A stretch of DNA of 53,764 nt from Saprospiraceae bacterium (GTDB taxonomy: Bacteria; Bacteroidota; Bacteroidia; Chitinophagales; Saprospiraceae), in NCBI GenBank assembly GCA_029212405.1, contig JARGNR010000015.1:1-53764 (forward strand), in the 5' to 3' direction. The notes beneath the pieces are model-generated. The model saw only the letters and a list, made by a program, of their open reading frames with translations, was not told the origin of the DNA and did no database searches. Position 1 is the stretch's first letter. Each line of letters opens with the position of its first letter. Positions 30,475 to 53,764 of this stretch are shown here, one piece after another. The translations under genes and the position numbers were made by a program.

Positions 30475-31893
30475 ATGCAAACCGCAAAGGAAATTCGTAA
30501 GTTCTGTGAGACAGGACTTCACGATCCGAATATTTCTGCAGAAGAAGCTGCGAAACTTCATGTAGAGTTAGGAGGATCCTTCATCACATCAGGCAAATTT
30601 GAAGAAGCTAAAACTGCTTTTTTAGACGCCATACATCACAATCCAAATTTTGCCGAGGCGTTCAGTAACCTCTCTCATGTTTTTGCACGTGAAGGGGATT
30701 TTGATAAGGCTGAAGAATATGGAGCTAAGGCCCATGAATTAAATTCTGAGAGTCATGAGTTGAACTGGTTGTTAGCTCGAGAAGGGAAAAGGATGACGGA
30801 AAAGCTGAAAAAGCATCCGATTCCTACACTTTTCTATAAAAGAGGTTTGCTTTTTGATTTTCAAGGATTTTTTGATAAAGCAAAAGAAGATTATAAAAAG
30901 GCGGTTGAAATTGATCCAGACTTTTTTGACGCATACAAAAAGTTGGGTGATGTATACTTGAAATTAGGAATGATAGAAGAAGCTGTTCAGTCTTATGATG
31001 AAGTTTCTGACCGGGTGCATGACTACAAATTTGATGAAGAGAATTTTTTGTTCATGGTAAAAAAATGGGAGCATTTTATTAAGAAAATAGAACTGAACCC
31101 AAGAGCTGCGGATTGTGCTCAATTGGCAACTTTCTTTGTAAGCCAAAAGACAGAACCGACACTACAAAAAGCTCGAAAGTATTTTAAGAAAGCGCTGGAA
31201 TTGGATCCCAATCATTTGGTAGCTAATGAAGGACTTCAAGAAGTTGAACTATTACTAGAAGGTAAAGGAATTATTGAAGATGATGAGCATATTGGACCTT
31301 CGCCACAGGTTCCAAATATACTTAGGCATCCTACTTCTATTGCAACTTCTGAATTGAGGACGGGAGGTTTTAAACCGAAAATTAAGTACGCCCAAATTTC
31401 AGATCCTAATCAAGTAGGTGTGGTACTATCTATTTCTCCTGATGTAGGCAGTGTTTTACCACATGGGCAAGAGAAAGTAGTGACTATTACTATAGGTCAT
31501 TTGGGATTACCACTTGAAGCTATTGAAGGGATAGGTCCAAAGAATAGAGAAAAACTATTGAATCATGGGGTAAAGGATCTCCAAGATCTTATTTCGAACC
31601 CAGATGTTGGAGATGAAATCGATGGACTTAGTGCAGAATCGACAAGGAAATGGTCTTCAATGGCTACTTGGATGTTTGTACTTCCTGAACACATTGATGG
31701 CAATGCAGCAGAATTGGCAGTTGTAGGCTTGGGGCTTGATTCTCCTGAAGACGCTTATGAAATGTTTCTAGGAAAACCACTGGAGGAAATTAGAGAATTC
31801 ATTAAAAATGCTTGCATTAAGGTCAAACTTCCAAATGACTATGTGAAAAATAATTTGGATACACTTTCACATCTTGTTTACAACATTTACTAG
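30475..31893 (+). CDS. TPR protein with PASTA-like and helix-hairpin-helix domains, RiPP cluster
   Basis: Residues ~25-260 contain tetratricopeptide repeats (FEEAKTAFLDAIHHNPNFAEA, FDKAKEDYKKAVEIDPDFFDA, ARKYFKKALELDPNHLVA), which form a peptide-binding solenoid. Residues ~297-342 look like a PASTA unit (YAQISDPNQVGVVLSISPDVG then VLPHGQEKVVTITI). Residues ~347-400 have a helix-hairpin-helix (LEAIEGIGPKNREKLLNHG). There is no signal peptide, so the protein is likely cytosolic. It lies 127 bases upstream of the precursor on the same strand. In RiPP systems such a protein might hold the precursor or scaffold the enzymes; that is inference. The triple-domain combination is one I do not recognise. 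Confidence 0.8.
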   Translation: MQTAKEIRKFCETGLHDPNISAEEAAKLHVELGGSFITSGKFEEAKTAFLDAIHHNPNFAEAFSNLSHVFAREGDFDKAEEYGAKAHELNSESHELNWLLAREGKRMTEKLKKHPIPTLFYKRGLLFDFQGFFDKAKEDYKKAVEIDPDFFDAYKKLGDVYLKLGMIEEAVQSYDEVSDRVHDYKFDEENFLFMVKKWEHFIKKIELNPRAADCAQLATFFVSQKTEPTLQKARKYFKKALELDPNHLVANEGLQEVELLLEGKGIIEDDEHIGPSPQVPNILRHPTSIATSELRTGGFKPKIKYAQISDPNQVGVVLSISPDVGSVLPHGQEKVVTITIGHLGLPLEAIEGIGPKNREKLLNHGVKDLQDLISNPDVGDEIDGLSAESTRKWSSMATWMFVLPEHIDGNAAELAVVGLGLDSPEDAYEMFLGKPLEEIREFIKNACIKVKLPNDYVKNNLDTLSHLVYNIY

Positions 31894-32020
31894 AAGCAGC
31901 CTGCCATTTTTTAAAACCTCAAATAGTTGAGAAACTTTTCTATGATTTATAGAATGTTTTGATTTTCAAAGAGTGGCAATTTTACCCAATAAATCATTAA
32001 TAACGCCAAAAAAGAAAAAC

Positions 32021-32896
32021 ATGAAAGCTATTGTAAATTCAGAGCTTGAGAATTATTACGGAGGAGCCAATCGTGGTGATCGTCTAAATCCTGGACAATC
32101 TATGTACGCAGGAGACTTTTTAATTTCTAGAAGTGGTATGTTCTATGCAAAGTATGAAAGTAGTGGCAATTTTGCCTTGTACGACTGGAACAATAGACCT
32201 ATATGGACCAGCCCGCGATGGCGATCAAATATAAGTCCAGGTAAAGTGACAATGCAGGCCAGTGACGGTAACTTTGTTGTTTATAATCGGAGCAATCAAC
32301 CTGTTTTTTCATCGAATAAGTATGGCCCTAGTCATGTAGGTAGTTATTTAATACTTCAGAATGATGGTAATTTGGTTACGTACAACCGTTACAATAGACC
32401 AACTTGGGCTTCTGGAACAAATAGAAGCGTGCCAAGTAATGCATTGACATCCTCCAAATATAATCAAGCTGTAGGTGCATCTGTATCCGCTGGTGGATTG
32501 TGTGGTGTTGCAGCGGCTGGGGCTTCAGCATGTGCTGGAGTAGCTTCATTTTATAGTGCATGTGGTGTAGTGACTGCTGCTGGAGCAGTATGTGGTGTTG
32601 TAGGTGGTGTTGCAAATGTGTGTGCAGGTGATGTAGCAGCAGCAAGTGTATGCGGAGCCGTGGCTGGAATAGGAGCAGTATGTGGAGCAGTAGCTTCTGT
32701 GGTTGGTGTTTGCGCAGGCGATATTGCAGGAGCTGAAGCGAATGCAGCAAGTGCTTGTGCTGGAAATATTAGTGGAACAGATGTCTGTGCAGCTGACGCA
32801 AATTTTGGAGTTCAAGGTGCTGGAGTTTGTGCAGCTCAAGTAGGATTCTGTGGAGCTGTAGCGTGTGTAGCACTTCCAATCGGTGGTAACTGGTAG
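32021..32896 (+). CDS. RiPP precursor: double-glycine leader, bulb-type lectin domain and Cys-decad repeat domain
   Basis: The ATG at 32021 is chosen over a GTG 16 codons upstream, because it yields a short leader MKAIVNSELENYYGG. Counting back from the cut after Gly15, Glu is at -8, Leu at -7, Tyr at -4, and Gly-Gly at -2/-1, as in C39-cleaved leaders. Residues ~20-132 form a three-part bulb-type (B-)lectin domain: QNDGNLVTY fits QxDxNxVxY exactly, QASDGNFVVY nearly, and YESSGNFALY is a degenerate third. No Cys occurs before residue 161. Cys then falls at 161, 171, 181, 191, 201, 211, 221 and 231, and next at 246, 256, 270, 277 and 282. The domain is rich in Ala, Gly and Val and ends PIGGNW. 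A radical SAM enzyme gene follows 44 bases later. The mature product and its activity are unknown. Confidence 0.85.
   Translation: MKAIVNSELENYYGGANRGDRLNPGQSMYAGDFLISRSGMFYAKYESSGNFALYDWNNRPIWTSPRWRSNISPGKVTMQASDGNFVVYNRSNQPVFSSNKYGPSHVGSYLILQNDGNLVTYNRYNRPTWASGTNRSVPSNALTSSKYNQAVGASVSAGGLCGVAAAGASACAGVASFYSACGVVTAAGAVCGVVGGVANVCAGDVAAASVCGAVAGIGAVCGAVASVVGVCAGDIAGAEANAASACAGNISGTDVCAADANFGVQGAGVCAAQVGFCGAVACVALPIGGNW
32501..32740 (+). repeat. Eight tandem decapeptide units (30-bp period), each opening with Cys
   Basis: Units read CGVAAAGASA, CAGVASFYSA, CGVVTAAGAV, CGVVGGVANV, CAGDVAAASV, CGAVAGIGAV, CGAVASVVGV and CAGDIAGAEA. Each begins Cys-Gly or Cys-Ala-Gly and ends in Ala or Val. The Cys codon is TGT or TGC in different units and the DNA has diverged while the spacing is fixed, which points to selection on the 10-residue period rather than recent slippage. 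Five further Cys follow with irregular spacing. Confidence 0.9.
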
Positions 32897-32940: not shown

Positions 32941-34479
32941 ATGAAAGAATCAGTTTATAATCTAAAAATAAAAATGAATGAGGGCAAGATGTTGATGTAC
33001 AACTCCCTCAGTCGATCATTAAGTTTACTTGACCCTGAAGATGTTACAGAATTGAATAATGTGCATTCTACGGAAAATGTATCGTTTGGTGATGACATTA
33101 CGAATGCAACTCCAACCATGCATCAAATGATGGCTCAAGGGTTTTTAATTCCCGACAGCGTTGATGAGCTCAATGTCGTCAAAGTAATGTATGAAGAAGC
33201 AAGGTTCAAATCAAACACAGTTAACTTTATCGTATGCTCTACATTGGCATGCAATTTTGGTTGTGATTATTGTTTTCAAGGATTAGACAAACCCATGGAA
33301 ACAATGAAACAAGAAGTGCAGGATGGAATTGTTGATATGTTTGAAAAATTATTGAATGATCGTCCTGATTTAACCAATGTCCAGTTTGTATGGTATGGTG
33401 GGGAACCTCTTGTAAAAAAGAAAATCATAATGGATCTAGCAGATCGAATGATTCCCATTGCCAAAGCCAAGAATGTGACCTATTCCGCGATGATGGTCTC
33501 CAATGGGTACTTAATGGATAAAAAGACAGCGAAAGCATTATATGAAAGGGGCCTTCATACCGTTCAGATCACTTTAGATGGCTCCAAGGAGTTTCATGAT
33601 GCACGTCGACATCTTCTTTCTAAAAAGGGAACGTATGATCGAATTCTAAGTCATTTGAAAGATTGGATTGATGAGGTTCCAATCATGGTGAATATTAGAG
33701 TGAATATTGATGAGCGGAACAAAGATGCAATTTGTGAATTGATTGACGATCTGGAGGTCAGAGGTCTATCTCACAAAAGGAACTTTAAGATGTATTTCAG
33801 TCCAGTTGAGTCCATCACTGAAGGATGTAAGGATGTGGCTGACAAAATGATGCAAAAGGTAGATTATGGACAGCTTGAGATCAAATTATACAGATATGCC
33901 TTTGAACATGGACTTGCGGACCTCCCTTATCCACCAAGATTTTTAGGTATATGTTCAGCTCTTCGCCCCAATGATTTTATCCTAGTGCCCAATGGAGACA
34001 TCCACAAATGTTGGGATACCGTAACTTTTCCAGAAAAAAGAGTGGGGAATGTGTTTGATGATACATCCATTCTCGTTAGTACTAATTCCAACAAAAAATT
34101 ATGGGATTCATTTAATCCATTCGATAATGAAATCTGTGTCAGTTGTAAAATATTACCAAATTGTAGTGGCTATTGTGCCCATAAATTTGTGTATTCTGAG
34201 GACACTTCAGGGGAGTCAATTTTACCATGTCCAAGTATCAAGTACTCTATAAATGAACGGCTTGTGTTGAGGGCTGAAAAAAGTGGTATCATTTCAAAAG
34301 AAGATTATGATCCTTCAATAATTAGAACCGATCCATACGAACTCACACCAAAAATGCATACAGTCGAAAGTATGCGGTCCAACACAGAATTAGAAAAATA
34401 CAAACAAAGTGCTAAAGCATTGGCGAATGACAAATTTATTCCATTAAATGTAGTTAATGCTGCTTCAGCTTCTAGTTAG
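32941..34479 (+). CDS. Radical SAM/SPASM peptide maturase
   Basis: The AdoMet radical motif is CNFGCDYC with Cys104, Cys108 and Cys111 binding the [4Fe-4S] cluster, followed by the SAM-contacting YGGEP (152-156). The C-terminal SPASM domain carries Cys338, Cys357, a CX2CX5CX3C block (Cys399, 402, 408, 412) and Cys430, which fits binding of two extra Fe-S clusters. Residues ~1-95 (MKESVYNLKIKMNEGKMLMY, then a GFLIPDSVDEL segment) look like the small N-terminal region seen in other Bacteroidota peptide maturases and may help bind the leader. SPASM enzymes make thioether (Cys to carbon), C-C or C-O cross-links in peptides. With a 13-Cys precursor next door, thioether or related bonds are the likely product; the exact bond is unknown. 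Length 512. Confidence 0.92.
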   Translation: MKESVYNLKIKMNEGKMLMYNSLSRSLSLLDPEDVTELNNVHSTENVSFGDDITNATPTMHQMMAQGFLIPDSVDELNVVKVMYEEARFKSNTVNFIVCSTLACNFGCDYCFQGLDKPMETMKQEVQDGIVDMFEKLLNDRPDLTNVQFVWYGGEPLVKKKIIMDLADRMIPIAKAKNVTYSAMMVSNGYLMDKKTAKALYERGLHTVQITLDGSKEFHDARRHLLSKKGTYDRILSHLKDWIDEVPIMVNIRVNIDERNKDAICELIDDLEVRGLSHKRNFKMYFSPVESITEGCKDVADKMMQKVDYGQLEIKLYRYAFEHGLADLPYPPRFLGICSALRPNDFILVPNGDIHKCWDTVTFPEKRVGNVFDDTSILVSTNSNKKLWDSFNPFDNEICVSCKILPNCSGYCAHKFVYSEDTSGESILPCPSIKYSINERLVLRAEKSGIISKEDYDPSIIRTDPYELTPKMHTVESMRSNTELEKYKQSAKALANDKFIPLNVVNAASASS

Positions 34480-34514: not shown

Positions 34515-35669
34515 ATGAATAGTATTCAGACGGAACTTCAGAAAATAGCGGCATTCTACAAAATAAATGATACAGCTTCTTTGGATAAAATAAATAATAT
34601 TGATCTTGACCATTATGTTGAAATTGTCTTGACATCGACAGGGTTTGAAATAGTAACAGGTGGTGCAAGTCGAGAAAAAGATCTCATAGAAGCAGCTCGA
34701 TCAAGTGGATATCCTGAGCAAATTGTTGAAGCATTCGATTTATTAACGAAGGCTTTTCCCAATAAAATGTTGTACTCCAAACAATGTTTTGGACCTGATA
34801 ATACACCACCTAGTATGTATTTATGTGTAGTGGAACCGTGGGAAAAAGTGATGCAGGAACTTAATAACTTGCCAGGATTAGATAATTCTTCTGAGTTATT
34901 GTCGAACATAGCAGTTCAACGAAAAATATGTTTTTTACTTGGATTTACAAGTAGTAAGAATGGAGAGCTACTGATTACAAAAACATACCATTTAGCTCCT
35001 TTTAATTCAGAATCAGGGGTTTTATCCCCCTATTTGATATCTAATAGATGTGCGGATAATAAACTATCCAATGAAAGTAAAACCTATGCTGCGGGCGTCA
35101 ACTGGGAACATTTTGAAGGTGACGAAACGTGGAACAAGATCTCAGCATTAGGAAACGAGCTATTTGGAGATAAATATGGAATGATGTTAGGGCAAACCAA
35201 AGAAGATGGAAAGACCACAAGCAAAAAGGCCTATATCTTTCGCTATGATAAACGAGAGAATGAACATTACTCTTTAAAAACCTACAATTATTATGCTGAG
35301 GAAGGGGCGCATCTTATGCGACTTGGAGATTATAGGGCAGCAATAGATGTTTTTACTGAATCTATTGAATTTCACAGGGACAATGATAGATCATTGGCAG
35401 AGCTTTATAATATGCGTGGTACACTTCATTACAGTTTGAGAAATATTAATGAAGCAAAAAAAGACATTTTAAAAGCCTTGGAATTAAATAATGAATTGGC
35501 TTCTGCACACAATAATTTATCTGCTATTCATCTTCAATTCCACGAATATGAAGAAGCGGTATATTCGGCAAGTTCAGCAATGTATTTGGATCCTGCTACA
35601 GATGTAACAAATTTGACAGTTGCCAAACGACTTTTGCGTGAAGCTGAAATGAAAGGAACTCTGCAATGA
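34515..35669 (+). CDS. Unknown domain fused to C-terminal TPR repeats, RiPP cluster
   Basis: Residues ~258-370 contain TPR repeats (YAEEGAHLMRLGDYRAAIDVF, AELYNMRGTLHYSLRNINEA, ASAHNNLSAIHLQFHEYEEA). Residues 1-250 match no family I recognise; a beta-rich middle is suggested by ICFLLGFTSSKNGELLITKTY. There are no catalytic motifs, signal peptide or membrane segments. The stop overlaps the start of the glycosyltransferase gene by four bases (ATGA), so the two are translationally coupled and probably act together. A substrate-adaptor role is plausible from the TPR part. A prenyltransferase-like fold for the N-terminal part is only a guess and should be tested by structure prediction. Confidence 0.75.
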   Translation: MNSIQTELQKIAAFYKINDTASLDKINNIDLDHYVEIVLTSTGFEIVTGGASREKDLIEAARSSGYPEQIVEAFDLLTKAFPNKMLYSKQCFGPDNTPPSMYLCVVEPWEKVMQELNNLPGLDNSSELLSNIAVQRKICFLLGFTSSKNGELLITKTYHLAPFNSESGVLSPYLISNRCADNKLSNESKTYAAGVNWEHFEGDETWNKISALGNELFGDKYGMMLGQTKEDGKTTSKKAYIFRYDKRENEHYSLKTYNYYAEEGAHLMRLGDYRAAIDVFTESIEFHRDNDRSLAELYNMRGTLHYSLRNINEAKKDILKALELNNELASAHNNLSAIHLQFHEYEEAVYSASSAMYLDPATDVTNLTVAKRLLREAEMKGTLQ

Positions 35670-36846: not shown

Positions 36847-38424
36847 TTGAAGGTAAAAGAGGACATTTCCAAGATTAGCCCAGAATGTGTTCTGTTTGAT
36901 GATGTGTTTTCTTTGTATGATGCCAATACGGCTACCTTTCAAACAAGTTCAAAAACTGAGTTGGTTGTAAAGCCAAGAAATGTAAAAGAGATCGTTGACC
37001 TTGTAAAGTTTTCATCGGAGAATAAATTAACTATTTATACGATTAGCCAGGGGAAAAACTGGGGTTTTGGTTCAAAAGTCCCCGTTAAGAATTGTTGCAT
37101 ATTAATGGACTTGTCTCAAATGAATAAAATTGTTTCATATGATGAAAAGTTTGGAACGGTTAGAATTGAACCTGGTGTTACATTCAGACAACTGAGTGAG
37201 TTTCTTGTTGAAAAAGGGGATGATCACTTTCTGAACACTATTGGAGGAGATCCAGAAGCTAGTGTTATGGGAAATCTTCTGGAAAGAGGAGATGGTGTTG
37301 GTCCATATTGTGAACGAGCTGCTTATGCTTGTCATTCTGAAATTATTACTTCAGACGGGGAGATAGTTGACATTGGATATGGGAATATAGATAAGTCAAG
37401 ATTAAGTGATTTGAATAAAGAAGGGATTGGCCCAGGGTTTCAAGAATTATTTTATCAATCCAATTTTGGAATTGTATCTAAAATCACCATTTGGCTACAA
37501 AAAAAGCCGGCCTTTTTTCGTACATTTTCTTTCGCTCAAAATGAGTCCAATAACTTTCCAAAACTATTGGAGTGTATTCGAAATTTATACCGAAAACGAA
37601 TAATAAACTCACCCATCACATTCTGGAACGATTACAAACAATTGGCCTCTAGTATTCAATTTCCTCACCACCTTACTGAAGTCAATCAGCCGTTATTAAG
37701 AGATAAAATTAAGGCATTCTCAAATGATTATTCTACGTGGTATGCCTTCGGAGGTGTGTATGTGGACAGTAAAAAAGTAGGTAGGGCTATTTTAGGTGAG
37801 GTCTTTTCAGCAATTAAACCCTTTATTAAACGGAAGACAATTTGGTCCCAATTATCAACAAGTAAAGTTAAATTATTAAGGCGGTTTAATGGATTTTTAG
37901 GTCTAAAGCAGTTCAATTTTGATCAATTGATCCATTCTTGGGAAGAAAATCACTTGTTGGGACATACAACGGGGAATTCAATTAAGTCGTTATTTTGGAG
38001 AAAAAAGAGACTTCCTCCAAAAGAAATTGATCCTAATAATGAGCTTTGTGGAGTACTTTGGAATTCTTTTTTAGTTCCTTTTGATGGAAATTTGATTGCA
38101 GAGGTATTGGCAGCCATAAACATGATAATACTTGAAAATGGATTCGAACCAGTAATTTCCTTCATTACTCTAAATGATAGATATATTAAAGTATTTCAGC
38201 AATTGATTTTTGATCGAGAAGACCTTAATCAAGACAAAAAAGCTTTGGAATGTCATCAGCTGGTATTTGAATATTTGGAAAAAATGGGTTGTTCTCATTC
38301 ACGACTTGATATATTACATATGCAAACCAGTAATGGTATATTGAAGAATGATTCCCTACATAAAAAGATAAAGCAAGCACTTGATCCTGTTGGTATTTTT
38401 TCTCCAGGAAGATATTTTAGTTAA
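36847..38424 (+). CDS. PCMH-type FAD-binding oxidase (VAO family), RiPP cluster
   Basis: The start is a TTG 14 bases after the glycosyltransferase; no nearer ATG keeps the conserved N-terminus. Residues ~35-220 form the VAO/PCMH FAD domain: VVKPRNVKEIVDLVKFSSE, then QGKNWGFGS, then the GDGVGPYCERAAYACHSEI segment and GPGFQELFYQSNFGIVSKI. This order is like vanillyl-alcohol oxidases and p-cresol methylhydroxylases, which oxidise alcohols, amines or phenols with FAD. Residues ~240-525 form the substrate/cap domain and end in ALDPVGIFSPGRYF, the usual closing motif. The site of covalent flavin attachment is not clear. On a peptide it might oxidise a side chain or a sugar. No signal peptide is seen. 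Confidence 0.82.
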   Translation: MKVKEDISKISPECVLFDDVFSLYDANTATFQTSSKTELVVKPRNVKEIVDLVKFSSENKLTIYTISQGKNWGFGSKVPVKNCCILMDLSQMNKIVSYDEKFGTVRIEPGVTFRQLSEFLVEKGDDHFLNTIGGDPEASVMGNLLERGDGVGPYCERAAYACHSEIITSDGEIVDIGYGNIDKSRLSDLNKEGIGPGFQELFYQSNFGIVSKITIWLQKKPAFFRTFSFAQNESNNFPKLLECIRNLYRKRIINSPITFWNDYKQLASSIQFPHHLTEVNQPLLRDKIKAFSNDYSTWYAFGGVYVDSKKVGRAILGEVFSAIKPFIKRKTIWSQLSTSKVKLLRRFNGFLGLKQFNFDQLIHSWEENHLLGHTTGNSIKSLFWRKKRLPPKEIDPNNELCGVLWNSFLVPFDGNLIAEVLAAINMIILENGFEPVISFITLNDRYIKVFQQLIFDREDLNQDKKALECHQLVFEYLEKMGCSHSRLDILHMQTSNGILKNDSLHKKIKQALDPVGIFSPGRYFS

Positions 38425-38444: not shown

Positions 38445-39650
38445 ATGGATTTTTTGAAACTGTTATCACCACATGCTATTGACGATTTTTTGAATTTATA
38501 TTGGGAGAAAGATTGGCTACATATAGATCGAGAGAATGCTTCTTACTTTGATGATTTACTTACCATGGAGGAAATAGATACAAGTCTTTTTGGCAATAAC
38601 AATTTAGCAGCATCTCCTTTCAAATTTTATAGAGGTAAAACAGAAGCAAGATTGGAACATTGGAGTGCAAATCAAACGTTAAATGGTGTTTCTACAAAAG
38701 TGTTGGATCATACTAGAGGGTTGAAATTACTAGAACAGGGCTTTAGTCTGTACTTAAATTATCCAAATACAATCTTTCCTGGAATCAATGAATTTTGTAA
38801 CAGAATTGAGCAGGCACTAAAAGTGAAAACGGTATCTCACTTGATTATTTCACCACCTAATACAGAAGGATTTTTACCGCACACTGATCCATATGGAGTG
38901 TTTGTATTACAAATTTCAGGGAGAAAATATTGGAATCTTTATCACATAGATGAAGATCGTACCAATCCACAGGGTCAGAATAAACACATGTTTCACAATC
39001 ACCCGCCAAAACATAAACTAGAATTAAGAGGAGGAAGTATGTTGTATATTCCAAGGGGGATGATACATAGTGTCAGTACGAATAATGAATATTCAGTGCA
39101 TATATCTCTAGGTATTTTACCACCCAAAGGCAGCAATATTGTGTCAATGTTTGAAAGAATGTCAGGCTCAATTTCTTTTTTTAATACGTATGTACCATAT
39201 GGATTTTTAAATTCAAAAAAGACTAGTAAAGAATACCAAGATGCGTTTAAGAAACAATTAATCGAATTGATTGAAAATACAGACATTTATGGCTTATTAG
39301 ACGCCTCTATTTCAAATTCAAAACTAAACATAGTTAAAAGGCCATTCAAAAAATTAGTGGATTCTCAGTTGCTTACTGAGAAATCCATACTTAGAGTGGT
39401 TTCAGGCTTAACTTATAGCATTAAAGAAAACGATGATGATGGTAGTTGTATAATTGAATTTCAAGATAAGCAGGTGCGATTTCCTCTCTTCTGGAAAACC
39501 GAACTCGAAAGAATATTGGCAAAAAAAACATTTTCAGTTGAAGAGATTGGTCATTCACTGAATATTGAAGTAAATGAACAAATTCAGATTGCAAAAAATA
39601 TGATTAATGTTGGACTTTTGGAAGAATTGAAAATTTTAGGAAAGACATAA
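38445..39650 (+). CDS. JmjC/ROX-type Fe(II)/2-oxoglutarate oxygenase, RiPP cluster
   Basis: The cupin core carries an iron-binding triad: His146 and Asp148 in LPHTDPYGVFVLQISGRKYW, and His208 in YIPRGMIHSV. Lys161 is a candidate for binding 2-oxoglutarate. The N-terminal part opens with LSPHAIDDFLNLYWEKDWL, as in bacterial ribosomal oxygenases (YcfD/RoxA) and cupin_4 proteins. The C-terminal ~130 residues (ILRVVSGLTYSIKEN, FSVEEIGHSL) look like their winged-helix tail. Known members hydroxylate ribosomal protein side chains; in a peptide cluster the target may be the core peptide. Length 401. The C39 peptidase gene starts two bases after its stop. Confidence 0.85.
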   Translation: MDFLKLLSPHAIDDFLNLYWEKDWLHIDRENASYFDDLLTMEEIDTSLFGNNNLAASPFKFYRGKTEARLEHWSANQTLNGVSTKVLDHTRGLKLLEQGFSLYLNYPNTIFPGINEFCNRIEQALKVKTVSHLIISPPNTEGFLPHTDPYGVFVLQISGRKYWNLYHIDEDRTNPQGQNKHMFHNHPPKHKLELRGGSMLYIPRGMIHSVSTNNEYSVHISLGILPPKGSNIVSMFERMSGSISFFNTYVPYGFLNSKKTSKEYQDAFKKQLIELIENTDIYGLLDASISNSKLNIVKRPFKKLVDSQLLTEKSILRVVSGLTYSIKENDDDGSCIIEFQDKQVRFPLFWKTELERILAKKTFSVEEIGHSLNIEVNEQIQIAKNMINVGLLEELKILGKT

Positions 39651-39652
39651 AA

Positions 39653-40102
39653 ATGAAATTGTTGACTCGAATGCCGGCTAGTTTTTTTCCATTTTATCAA
39701 CAGGAGGGGATGAATGAGTGTGGTCATGCATGTATAAAAATGATTGCAAAGTATTATGGATTAGATTATAATCCTTCAGAAATTGAACGGAGAAAAAGTG
39801 TTACAGCAAAAGGAGTCAACATGCTTCACCTATCCAACATAATCACAGCAATTGGACTTATATCAGAAGCATTAAAAGGAACTTTTGAAGAATTCATGGA
39901 ACAAGGAGAATTACCCTGTATAGCTTTTTGGGAGCAAAATCATTTTATTGTTGTATTCGATGCAAGTGAACAGTATATTCAAATTGCTGATCCTAAGGTT
40001 GGAAAACACACCCTAACTCACCAAGAATTTATTGATGGTTGGACGACAATGAAGAATGGTCAAAAAGAAGGTGTTATTCTGACCGTGAGAAGCACAGATT
40101 AA
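39653..40102 (+). CDS. Standalone C39 double-glycine peptidase, RiPP cluster
   Basis: The papain-like C39 triad is present: Cys23 in EGMNECGHACIKMI, His97 in EQNHFIVV and Asp113 in IADPKVG. Gln17 is six residues before the Cys and would form the oxyanion hole. In most systems C39 is the N-terminal domain of an ABC exporter that cuts after Gly-Gly while exporting the peptide. Here it is only 149 residues, with no membrane or ATPase domain and no signal peptide. It is the last gene of the cluster, two bases after the oxygenase. The precursor leader (Glu -8, Leu -7, Gly-Gly) is a clear candidate substrate. Who exports the product is not explained by the window. Confidence 0.88.
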   Translation: MKLLTRMPASFFPFYQQEGMNECGHACIKMIAKYYGLDYNPSEIERRKSVTAKGVNMLHLSNIITAIGLISEALKGTFEEFMEQGELPCIAFWEQNHFIVVFDASEQYIQIADPKVGKHTLTHQEFIDGWTTMKNGQKEGVILTVRSTD

Positions 40103-40138: not shown

Positions 40139-40948
40139 TTACAAATCAAACTTGATATTCCAATTGTTTTTTATGGATTCTAGTTTAGGTACAATAGTTG
40201 AATTTTCTTCGTTGTTTTCTGATATGAAAATAGGTATAAAATCTCCTTTTTCGTTTTCATTTAGAATAGAGTGATCACTTGTAAACGATTCACCAGTGAG
40301 ATTATGACCAGATCGACTCGTGTATTGATATTGTACAAATACTCCTAATGCAGCATTTGAAATTGGGATAGATTTTTTTTGGATCATTGATATTATTTTT
40401 CCTTTTGCTACCCTACCATTTTTATAAAGCATGATTTCTTTTTGCAAAGTATAGAAGGCATAAATTAGGAATGGTAGTCCAATTAAAAAGAAGACTAACG
40501 GAATATATTTGAGAAATTCGGTAGGGAATCTGAAAGGTTTCAAATTTTGAATAACTGAATTGCCTTCTAGTGTTTTGATTTGGATTTCGTCACCTATAGT
40601 TAACCCTTTTGCTTTATTTTCGGAAAGCGTTCTGTATTGGGAGTCAAATTTAACTCCATCTTGAGAATAAGTATAGTATATAATGTATGGGTGTACTCGG
40701 TTTATACTTATATTCTTTTGAACTTCAATATCTGTAATTATTGCAGTAGTCGCTATTCCTTGCTTGTTTATTAAATCATAATCAACAATAGAATCATCGG
40801 ACATTAAAGGGTTAAAAAATATCGAAAAAGCGATAAATACTAAAATAGAGATTCCAGTAAAGGCTGTTCCTATTATTGTTGGAATTGGCTTTGTCTTTAT
40901 TAATTTTATTATTGTGGAAAAAGGAACTTTCCTTGGAATATTGCTCAT
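40139..40948 (-). CDS. DUF3592 membrane protein
   Basis: Two hydrophobic segments (residues ~23-48, TIIGTAFTGISILVFIAFSIFF, and ~148-170, YIPLVFFLIGLPFLIYAFYTL; each shown within limits) flank soluble regions. The region between them (TTAIITDIEVQKNISINRVHPYIIYYTY, shown only in part here) and the C-terminal region (VAKGKIISMIQK, VFVQYQYTSRSG) have the DUF3592 pattern, a beta domain of unknown role in membrane proteins. The gene runs toward the RiPP cluster and ends 36 bases from its last stop. Its position probably does not imply shared function. Confidence 0.75.
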   Translation of the reverse strand: MSNIPRKVPFSTIIKLIKTKPIPTIIGTAFTGISILVFIAFSIFFNPLMSDDSIVDYDLINKQGIATTAIITDIEVQKNISINRVHPYIIYYTYSQDGVKFDSQYRTLSENKAKGLTIGDEIQIKTLEGNSVIQNLKPFRFPTEFLKYIPLVFFLIGLPFLIYAFYTLQKEIMLYKNGRVAKGKIISMIQKKSIPISNAALGVFVQYQYTSRSGHNLTGESFTSDHSILNENEKGDFIPIFISENNEENSTIVPKLESIKNNWNIKFDL

Positions 40949-52389: not shown

Positions 52390-53764
52390 ATGAAGATCAC
52401 TTTACAAAATTTTGTCTCCATTCTCTCAGCACTTTTTGTTGTCTGTCAAATGGGTAAATCACAATGCACAGTTGATGCAGGAACCATATCAACGCTAGAT
52501 CCAACAACTATATGTGTAGACGGGATTCCTGATCCCATAAATGTAACAGTTTCTGGAGCCACAGGTACTGAGTCCGCTTGGATAATTACTGACACAGGAA
52601 ATACCATTTTAGCAAGCCCGCCAAGCGGTCCTTTTGATCTGAATGGTGCAGGCCCTGGTACATGTTTGATTTGGTATATCAGTCATGATGGCACCTTAGC
52701 AGGGAATGTTACTGGAAATAATATTAGTGACTTGACAGGGTGTTTTGATTTATCCAATGAAATAACTGTTGAAAGAAACGAACCCTTAGGAGGCATAATA
52801 TCAACGACAGACGAAACTACAATTTGTGTAGATGGTATAGGTGATCCAATTGATGTCAGCTTAGCGGGAAATAGTGGCGGTAATTCCGCATGGGTAATTA
52901 CGGATGAGTCTTTAAATATTCTAGGCTTACCACCAGGACCCCCATTTGATTTAGATGGTGCAGGCCCAGGAGTATGTTTAATCTGGCACTTATCATTTGA
53001 AGATGGACTTACAGGAGCGGAAGTAGGCATGAATGCGGCAGATCTAGATGGTTGCTATGAATTATCGAATAGTATTGCAGTAACCAGAAATGAACCAATA
53101 GGAGGCATGATATCAACAACCGATGAAACTACCATCTGTGTAGATGGCATAGGTGACCCAATTGATGTCAGCTTAACAGGAAATAGTGGCGGTAATTCCG
53201 CATGGGTAATTACGGATGAGTCTTTAAATATTCTAGGCTTACCACCAGGACCCCCATTTGATTTAGATGGTGCAGGCCCAGGAGTATGTTTAATCTGGCA
53301 CTTATCATTTGAAGATGGACTTACAGGAGCGGAAGTAGGGATGAATGCGGCGGATTTAGATGGATGTTATGAATTATCGAATAGTATTGCGGTTACCAGA
53401 AATGAACCAAATGGAGGATCACTTTCTACAGATGATGAAACAACCATTTGTGTAGATGGAACTCCTGACCCAATAGAAGTAATGGTAGAAGATGCAGTTG
53501 GAACAAATGCCCAGTGGATTATAACTAATGATACATTTATGATTTTAGGTAAACCTACTGGCCCAACATTTGATTTAGATGGTGCAGGACCTGGAACATG
53601 TTTAATTTGGTACATGCGATATGAGGGCTCGTTAATGGGAGATACTTTGGGAGGTGTTTTAGAAAATATATCCGGATGTTATGATTTGTCAGATAGCATT
53701 GCGGTGATCAGAAACGAACCGATAGGAGGTACGATCTCGACGACAGATGAGACAACGATCTGTA
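52390..53764 (+). CDS. Giant secreted repeat protein (3' end outside window)
   Basis: The frame is open to the last base of the window. A signal peptide (MKITLQNFVSILSALFVVCQ, cleaved near GKSQC) predicts export. From about residue 30 the chain is built of 104-residue repeats, each with ETTICVDGIGDPI-like and PPFDLDGAGPGVCLIW-like segments and two or three Cys (ICVD, TCLIW or VCLIW, GCYDLS), which could form disulfides. Four full repeats and the start of a fifth are visible. Such repeat proteins of Bacteroidota are usually surface adhesins, often ending in a type IX sorting domain; the end is not visible here. It may be controlled by the sigma factor operon upstream, but that is inference. 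Confidence 0.85.
   Translation, partial: MKITLQNFVSILSALFVVCQMGKSQCTVDAGTISTLDPTTICVDGIPDPINVTVSGATGTESAWIITDTGNTILASPPSGPFDLNGAGPGTCLIWYISHDGTLAGNVTGNNISDLTGCFDLSNEITVERNEPLGGIISTTDETTICVDGIGDPIDVSLAGNSGGNSAWVITDESLNILGLPPGPPFDLDGAGPGVCLIWHLSFEDGLTGAEVGMNAADLDGCYELSNSIAVTRNEPIGGMISTTDETTICVDGIGDPIDVSLTGNSGGNSAWVITDESLNILGLPPGPPFDLDGAGPGVCLIWHLSFEDGLTGAEVGMNAADLDGCYELSNSIAVTRNEPNGGSLSTDDETTICVDGTPDPIEVMVEDAVGTNAQWIITNDTFMILGKPTGPTFDLDGAGPGTCLIWYMRYEGSLMGDTLGGVLENISGCYDLSDSIAVIRNEPIGGTISTTDETTIC
52479..53764 (+). repeat. Tandem repeats with exact 312-bp period
   Basis: The recurring AGG-A/C-x phrase that opens the repeats starts at 52479, 52791, 53103, 53415 and 53727, each step exactly 312 bases (104 codons). 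Repeats 2 and 3 are nearly identical at DNA level over about 300 bases, while 1 and 4 have diverged, so the central pair arose by recent duplication or conversion. Confidence 0.95.

What the first reader, a model, noticed from the sequence alone, without database searches (positions are those of the whole stretch)
32501..32866. Cysteines at an exact 10-residue period in the precursor
Cys161 to Cys231 fall every 10 residues without exception (eight positions), then at 246, 256, 270, 277 and 282. No Cys occurs in the first 160 residues. The units differ in sequence but keep Cys-Gly or Cys-Ala-Gly at the start and Ala or Val at the end. Strict spacing with diverged DNA suggests structural constraint, such as a repeated thioether or other ring per decad, or a stacked solenoid.
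Basis: seen in the sequence. Interest (0 to 1): 0.93.

Follow-up and report, generated by a model that had tools for sequence, protein, structure and literature searches.

The report
Lectin-fused peptide with cysteine ladder
A bacterium encodes a sugar-binding-type protein whose tail carries cysteines at regular steps, next to the gene of an enzyme that probably modifies them; it is an unusual variant of a peptide family known from sequence models.

Summary
The cysteine pattern is real and far beyond chance: eight Cys exactly 10 residues apart, then 15, 10, 14, 7, 5. It forms the C-terminal part of a 291-aa protein whose N-terminal half is a mannose-binding-lectin-type domain. The next gene is a TIGR04463 radical SAM/SPASM RiPP maturase. 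Of 26 loci with related maturases, 23 have a Cys-periodic protein beside it; in 21 of these gaps of five or its multiples recur. The nearest outgroup maturase (Hormoscilla) has mostly Cys every fifth residue. The decad is best read as a pentad lattice with alternate Cys missing, a CefA-like ('Cys-every-fifth') relative. A second Chitinophagales genome has the same seven-gene cluster (lectin precursor, maturase, TPR protein, glycosyltransferase, VAO-type flavoenzyme, JmjC oxygenase, C39 peptidase) and the same last ten Cys gaps. Most likely the maturase forms intramolecular thioethers on the array, with the lectin kept as a targeting domain. Neither chemistry nor function is shown. Asp/Glu-linked (PapB-type) rings could serve about 3 of 13 Cys.

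The parts
32021..32065 (+). Putative leader, residues 1-15 (MKAIVNSELENYYGG), ending in Gly-Gly that would fit C39 peptidase cleavage
   Evidence: Sequence. Gly-Gly is kept in L046 (YGGAKRG). Resemblance to the family N-terminal motif (MKYIVQP-like) is weak: 14 of 1574 other ORF starts score as well. The cleavage site is inference.
32084..32422 (+). Lectin domain (monocot mannose-binding / B_lectin type), residues about 22-134; one perfect QxDxNxVxY site at residues 113-121
   Evidence: PF01453 E 3.9e-6, 27.7 bits, below the gathering score 32.4; phmmer to gastrodianin-4 1.4e-12, an agglutinin (1jpc) 1.3e-11, pyocin L2 8.4e-9; putidacin L1 model E 9.9e-14, 51.3 bits, far below cut-off 275; motif.
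32501..32893 (+). Cys-periodic core, residues 161-291: 13 Cys, read as a pentad lattice with Cys heading every second pentad, phase breaking near the end (14, 7, 5), tail CVALPIGGNW
32021..32896 (+). Precursor gene, 291 aa (an in-frame GTG at 31973 is an alternative start)
32941..34479 (+). Radical SAM/SPASM peptide maturase, TIGR04463
   Evidence: 538.2 bits, cut-off 525; CNFGCDYC and the full 7-Cys SPASM motif; all ten cluster Cys invariant in the 24 maturases aligned
34515..35669 (+). TPR protein with an unassigned N-terminal part (about 250 aa)
   Evidence: L046 55%, L047 26% identity
35666..36832 (+). Glycosyltransferase, MGT/GT1-like
   Evidence: TIGR01426 E 2.3e-17, below cut-off; YjiC 1.3e-10 and oleandomycin GT 8.5e-8 in the PDB; L046 62%, L047 42%
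36847..38424 (+). Flavoenzyme, nearest named solved relatives p-cresol methylhydroxylase and vanillyl-alcohol oxidase
   Evidence: PF01565 3.5e-20; PDB: 'FAD-binding oxidoreductase' 7.5e-46, 4-cresol dehydrogenase flavoprotein subunit 1.8e-40, vanillyl-alcohol oxidase 8.2e-23; L046 63%. Start codon TTG.
38445..39650 (+). JmjC (NO66/MINA-like) oxygenase
   Evidence: PF08007 2.3e-22; NO66 5.4e-16, MINA 1e-11; H146-x-D148 and H208 in place (that these are the iron ligands is recalled); L046 49%
39653..40102 (+). Stand-alone C39 peptidase domain, 149 aa
   Evidence: PF03412 7.4e-31; PCAT-type peptidase domains in the PDB; Cys23, His97, Asp113 in place (catalytic role recalled); L046 53%

Best explanation
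The feature is the substrate region of a ribosomally made, post-translationally modified protein (RiPP) of the TIGR04463 / Cys-every-fifth kind, fused behind a lectin domain. SHOWN by sequence: a maturase-precursor pair in a seven-gene cluster kept in one other genome, and a Cys lattice whose basic step in relatives is five and which here heads every second pentad. INFERRED: the maturase uses its 5'-deoxyadenosyl radical to join many of the Cys sulfurs to a nearby residue, giving a ladder of small thioether rings. The acceptor is probably a backbone alpha-carbon or an aliphatic side chain, because few units carry an acid. The JmjC oxygenase, the flavoenzyme and the glycosyltransferase then hydroxylate, oxidise and glycosylate the protein. 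The C39 peptidase cuts after Gly14-Gly15, leaving lectin and ladder as one exported product. The lectin directs the ladder to a glycan on another cell or on the producer's own surface; targeted antagonism is the leading guess for function.
For: Maturase 538 bits against cut-off 525, both cluster motifs; closest solved structure by sequence 5wgg, listed as 'Radical SAM domain protein' (that this is the thioether-forming CteB is recalled). Cys-periodic ORFs lie beside the maturase in 23 of 26 loci: 21 with steps of five or multiples, 2 with 10+7 and 9+7. By the same spacing test, 0 of 2158 ORFs in 32 loci with distant rSAM relatives; ranked by longest run of equal Cys gaps, the top 18 of 3578 ORFs are all such precursors. 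23 of 24 maturases scanned hit TIGR04463 at E 1e-100 or better; 13 of 23 precursors scanned hit the CefA model at E 0.001, as does Methylomagnum's. L046 keeps genes, order and last ten gaps. Window + L046 + L047 group with 100/100 support, and L047 has 16 of 20 gaps of five.
Against: No chemistry for a TIGR04463 or Cef maturase was found in the papers searched. The window precursor does not match the CefA model. With Cys masked, residue identity at lags 5 and 10 in the window is not above chance (p 0.84 and 0.29; L046 0.04 and 0.001). Around Cys, information is above the shuffled level at all 16 offsets from -8 to +8, not only at +1 to +4, so constraint is not confined to a Cys-headed unit. 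The leader motif is weak in the window. No PqqD-type recognition domain was found in the maturase's first 100 residues. No full ABC transporter was found on the window's contig in the HlyB search; four C39-ABC proteins are elsewhere in the genome. There is only one close homologue, and its contig starts inside the precursor. The flavoenzyme and JmjC genes were matched in L046 alone among 26 loci.
Confidence: 0.6

Rival explanations
1. Asp/Glu-linked ranthipeptide: each Cys joins the beta- or gamma-carbon of an acid a few residues on, as PapB does in its CX3D motifs.
For: The window maturase scores 101.7 bits with the PapB model (cut-off 340); +3 is the most informative position after Cys in 24 precursors (157 Cys with a next gap of 9 or more; D 40%); PapB accepts CXnD with n 0-6 (PMC9413430, passages read).
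Against: Only 3 of 13 window Cys (5 of 14 in L046; 251 of 518 in 22 others) have D or E at +1 to +7 before the next Cys; 6 of 10 in-phase Cys pentads of the window carry Val at +3.
Confidence: 0.12
2. Beta-solenoid: pentads stack as in pentapeptide-repeat proteins, Cys line interior columns, and the maturase does something else, such as closing a few staples or changing stereochemistry.
For: Small residues (A, S, G, N) stand in for Cys at position 1 of the ten non-Cys pentads and A/V/I fill position 5 in 17 of 19 pentads; no indels against L046 in the core; constraint extends over -8 to +8 around Cys.
Against: No pentapeptide-repeat model matches at E up to 10. The step differs between lineages (5, 10+5, 9+7, 10+7, 5+5+7) and breaks inside the window (14, 7, 5), which suits a local unit better than a coil of fixed length. 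Not tested by fold prediction.
Confidence: 0.17
3. Sulfur decoration or metal binding: the glycosyltransferase caps Cys (S-glycosylation), or the thiols bind metal, and no rings form.
For: A glycosyltransferase is kept in L046 and L047.
Against: Among 26 loci that glycosyltransferase was matched only in L046 and L047 (flanks of at most 12 kb, often less), while a Cys lattice is in 23.
Confidence: 0.08
4. Low-complexity Ala/Gly/Val tail whose Cys spacing is accidental, or an antisense frame of a pentapeptide-repeat gene.
For: Antisense frames of pentapeptide-repeat genes do give Cys-every-fifth ORFs.
Against: 0 of 100,000 shuffles reach the observed run; the window core's three antisense frames have 1-3 stops and no A[DN][LFM] unit; spacing kept in L046.
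Confidence: 0.02

Closest known systems
TIGR04463 maturase with CefA (NF038108)-type precursor, e.g. Methylomagnum ishizawai plasmid NZ_AP019784
   Same: Same maturase family (46% identity); precursor with ricin-B and crystallin domains in front and a Cys-lattice tail that includes a run of four 10-residue gaps
   Different: There 20 of 27 gaps are five and a TIGR03975 radical SAM methyltransferase follows. The window has alternate-pentad Cys, a B_lectin-type domain, no second radical SAM gene found on its contig, and TPR, GT, flavoenzyme, JmjC and C39 genes
CefA/CefB (NF038108/NF038107)
   Same: Cys-periodic precursor and related rSAM/SPASM maturase (206 bits with CefB)
   Different: Window maturase is far below the CefB cut-off of 600 and the precursor does not match CefA
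PapA/PapB ranthipeptides
   Same: Several Cys in a repeated motif; related maturase; possible small thioether rings
   Different: PapB links Cys to Asp/Glu (PMC9413430, passages); 10 of 13 window Cys have no acid at +1 to +7
Lectin-like bacteriocins (putidacin L1, pyocin L1)
   Same: Monocot mannose-binding-type lectin domain with QxDxNxVxY
   Different: Those have tandem lectin domains (PMC3916391, start of abstract and passages); here one domain plus a Cys array

Membership tests
TIGR04463 rSAM/SPASM RiPP maturase system | Maturase above the curated cut-off | tested here: met
   538.2 against 525 bits
TIGR04463 rSAM/SPASM RiPP maturase system | Radical SAM CX3CX2C and SPASM 7-Cys motif | tested here: met
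   C104/108/111 and C338...C430; invariant in the 24 aligned
TIGR04463 rSAM/SPASM RiPP maturase system | Adjacent Cys-rich target (taken from the model name rSAM_vs_C_rich) | tested here: met
   Precursor ends 44 bases upstream
CefA (NF038108) Cys-every-fifth peptide | Match to the CefA model above cut-off 30 | tested here: not met
   No match for precursor or core at E up to 10; 13 of 23 precursors scanned match at E 0.001
CefA (NF038108) Cys-every-fifth peptide | Cys every fifth residue | tested here: not met
   1 of 12 gaps is 5, 8 are 10; 10 are multiples of five
Ranthipeptide (PapB type) | Cys-Xn-Asp/Glu motif for each cross-link | tested here: not met
   3 of 13 Cys
Ranthipeptide or sactipeptide | Thioether to a beta/gamma- or alpha-carbon | not testable with these tools
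   needs mass spectrometry
Lectin-like bacteriocin (putidacin L1, NF033557) | Model score above cut-off 275; tandem lectin domains | tested here: not met
   51.3 bits; one lectin domain by phmmer
Pentapeptide-repeat protein | Match to a Pfam pentapeptide model | tested here: not met
   none at E up to 10

The most novel reading that the evidence does not exclude
A glycan-guided RiPP protein: a folded lectin stays covalently attached to a ladder of about a dozen radical-made thioether rings on mostly non-acidic residues, further hydroxylated and glycosylated, and the pair acts as a targeted antibacterial or adhesive. It would be one case of a class spread over many phyla in which a folded domain (lectin, trefoil or crystallin type) sits between the N-terminus and a distant modified core.
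Probability: 0.22. Interest if true: 0.86.

Novelty: new variant of a known kind. Interest (0 to 1): 0.58.

Why it matters
TIGR04463 and CefA are model-defined families; two searches of the held library found no paper naming them. One lattice seen at steps of 5, 10, 10+5, 9+7, 10+7 and 5+5+7 is a natural mutant series that makes the maturase's rule (local Cys-headed unit or global period) directly testable. Different folded domains precede the core: of nine precursors given to Pfam whole, the window and L046 showed B_lectin (both below the gathering score, L046 weakly), L045 and L049 ricin-B and crystallin, L093 crystallin and FRG1/fascin, while L047, L060, L062 and L066 gave nothing above a cut-off. 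That suggests a modular carrier for a radical-modified tail. Loci with such precursors come from Bacteroidota, Cyanobacteriota, Chloroflexota, Myxococcota, Pseudomonadota, Actinomycetota, Verrucomicrobiota, Synergistota, Bacillota and methanogens.

Tried and rejected
Structure prediction of the precursor and of a pentad core: not accepted, so no fold search was run. Maturase in viral contigs: 49 stretches matched a pattern, none a relative. Core profile A3 in 395 genomes of the phylum: 6 hit; of seven loci opened, four (L241, L242, L244, L245) show pentapeptide-repeat genes in what was printed, with Cys-every-fifth ORFs antisense to them in L241, L242 and in part L245; the window does not behave so. 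The A3 profile did not find the window's own core at E 1e-8. Maturase against phage records: 57 records, all under 60% identity, the five listed 21-29%, not pursued. Precursor against plasmids: 23 records; the ten listed match residues 13-146, the lectin, only. PqqD-like domain in the maturase: none. Foreign origin by base composition: cluster GC 0.36 against 0.35 on both sides, no signal. Lectin-core profile in 148 relatives: 7 genomes hit, core matched only in the window's own.

An error of mine: in the tree two of three outgroups (L002, L041) were translated from the wrong strand. rebuilt it with the right strands but its display failed; one search shows it. The group window + L046 + L047 stands at 100/100 in both; much of the deeper branching is open and the outgroups sit on very long branches, so nothing else is taken from the tree but the pairing of L061 with L063.

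Rows dropped or not used: L051, L068 and L069 (no lattice precursor found; L069 holds only part of the maturase at the end of its held stretch); L061 and L063 (16-17 step) are not in the 462 gaps. The 21 locus precursors there were selected by at least five gaps of 5, 10, 15 or 20 making over 30% of gaps, so 422 of 462 is biased upward. L046, L050 and L065 were left out of the N-terminal motif test. L067 and L069 were left out of the trees; L045, L067 and L069 out of the 24 maturases; L045 out of the 23 precursors.

Full report
OBSERVATION. The ORF that starts at ATG 32021 encodes 291 residues with 13 Cys, all between 161 and 282: seven gaps of 10, then 15, 10, 14, 7, 5. In 100,000 shuffles of the tail the longest run of equal gaps was 5, observed 7. 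Decads differ at the DNA level (mean nucleotide identity 0.54).

WHAT IT IS. The N-terminal half is a lectin domain of the monocot mannose-binding type: phmmer finds gastrodianin, an agglutinin (1jpc, snowdrop by recall), pyocins L1 and L2 and putidacin L1; the Pfam B_lectin match is below the gathering score. One perfect QxDxNxVxY site lies at 113-121; the motif is the sugar site of this fold (PMC3916391, passages read). L046 has no perfect site. The next gene is a radical SAM/SPASM enzyme above the cut-off of TIGR04463.

RELATIVES. A plasmid of Methylomagnum ishizawai carries a TIGR04463 enzyme 46% identical to the window's, beside a 679-residue protein with ricin-B and crystallin domains and a Cys-every-fifth tail annotated CefA. 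A genome scan gave 57 loci. I examined the plasmid locus and 25 of the 57 (L046-L069, L093), those matching at 33% identity or more over their best segment. Of these 26, 21 have an ORF with recurring Cys gaps of 5, 10, 15 or 20 beside the maturase and 2 more, from one clade, have steps of 10+7 and 9+7. L051, L068 and L069 show none. The other 32 loci, with distant rSAM relatives, gave 0 such ORFs in 2158; ranked by longest run of equal gaps, the top 18 of 3578 ORFs in all 58 loci are precursors. Of 24 maturases scanned, 23 match TIGR04463 at E 1e-100 or better, with all ten cluster Cys invariant. Of 23 precursors scanned, 13 match CefA at E 0.001; the window's does not.

PERIOD. In 20 precursors other than the window's and L046's, 401 of 437 core gaps are multiples of five (selection bias stated under Tried and rejected), and 15 of the 20 contain gaps of 10. 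There the pentad without Cys is headed mostly by G, S or A (69 of 93). The window's non-Cys pentads fit the non-Cys pentad profile of those 20 (7 of 5000 shuffles as good; all pentads together 0 of 5000), and A/V/I fill pentad position 5 in 17 of 19 (p 0.0012). Against this, plain residue identity at lags 5 and 10 with Cys masked is not above chance in the window (lag 15: p 0.03); in L046 lags 5, 10 and 15 give p 0.04, 0.001 and 0.002. The maturase trees group window, L046 and L047 at 100/100; L047 has 16 of 20 gaps of five. That the decad arose by loss of alternate Cys is therefore likely but inferred.

CONSTRAINT. L046, a Chitinophagales metagenome-assembled genome with an 82% identical maturase, has the same lectin-core architecture; from residue 159 the two cores align without a gap, 12 of 13 Cys are kept and the last ten gaps are identical. 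Core dN 0.34, dS 2.3 (rough; dS for the lectin part was not computable). L046 also keeps the order precursor, maturase, TPR, glycosyltransferase, flavoenzyme, JmjC, C39. The system is rare: over the TIGR04463 cut-off in 1 of 148 relatives and 1 of 395 genomes of the phylum, both the window's own genome; the three same-genus genomes searched are not over it.

MECHANISM. Cys is mostly followed by [GA], then A/G/V, while the distance to the next Cys varies between lineages. This favours local chemistry over a coil of fixed length, but not cleanly: positions from -8 to +8 around Cys all carry more information than shuffles. The related maturase PapB joins Cys to Asp/Glu (PMC9413430, passages read). 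Only 3 of 13 window Cys have an acid at +1 to +7, against 251 of 518 in 22 other precursors, so the acceptor must be something else for most Cys if they are modified. Tailoring genes: NO66/MINA-like JmjC with HxD and distal His, a flavoenzyme near p-cresol methylhydroxylase and vanillyl-alcohol oxidase, an MGT-like glycosyltransferase. That these act on the product is inferred from their place in the cluster. The C39 domain has its Cys, His and Asp, and Gly-Gly stands at the same place in both species, so cleavage there is plausible. Four C39-ABC proteins elsewhere in the genome could export the product.

FUNCTION. Lectin plus modified tail suggests glycan-directed delivery. The comparison with lectin-like bacteriocins rests on the domain only; the window is not a member (51 bits against 275). 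Adhesion or surface coating is equally open.

LITERATURE. No paper in the held library names TIGR04463 or NF038107, NF038108, Cys-every-fifth, TIGR04334 or Clo7bot. Broader searches on radical SAM with Cys-rich, lectin or repeat precursors listed none that I recognised as this system from titles and abstract starts; the lists were 17 of 18 papers, 20 of 3,408, 14 of 14, 20 of 85, 25 of 103, 20 of 213 and 5 of 6. PMC9062424 (passages) maps radical SAM enzymes, but the passages shown do not describe this system. Most subscription journals are not held. The names CefA and TIGR04463 come from NCBIfam.

Noticed in passing
window 40139-40948 (-): Membrane-type protein with a weak, below-cut-off DUF3592 match, also present after the C39 gene in L046 (46% identity); it may belong to the system although it is on the opposite strand.
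   Followed up: partly
L061 2068-3510, L063 7628-9292: Precursors of two Rhodobacterales-type genomes with 41 and 34 Cys, largely at alternating 10+7 and 9+7 steps, so the period itself evolves.
   Followed up: partly
L056, L058, L059, L060: Precursors with a leader-like segment ending in VAGG or IAGG shortly before the core, with a 10+5 Cys pattern in L056, L059 and L060; L060 has a C39-ABC transporter near by.
   Followed up: partly
L241 and L242: Frames antisense to pentapeptide-repeat genes give ORFs with Cys every fifth residue, a trap for spacing-based mining.
   Followed up: yes
L048 11480-12253 and 12523-13767: The Okeania precursor looks split into two ORFs, N-terminal part and lattice part apart; described only.
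   Followed up: no
window 52390-53763 (+): Protein built of long, nearly identical repeats, running off the window end.
   Followed up: no
window 30475-31893 (+): Protein combining TPR, a PASTA domain and a weak helix-hairpin-helix match just upstream of the precursor.
   Followed up: no
window 36847-38424 (+): Flavoenzyme resembles 4-alkylphenol-oxidising enzymes; tyrosine side chains are 4-alkylphenols, so Tyr in the lectin or core could be its target (idea only).
   Followed up: no
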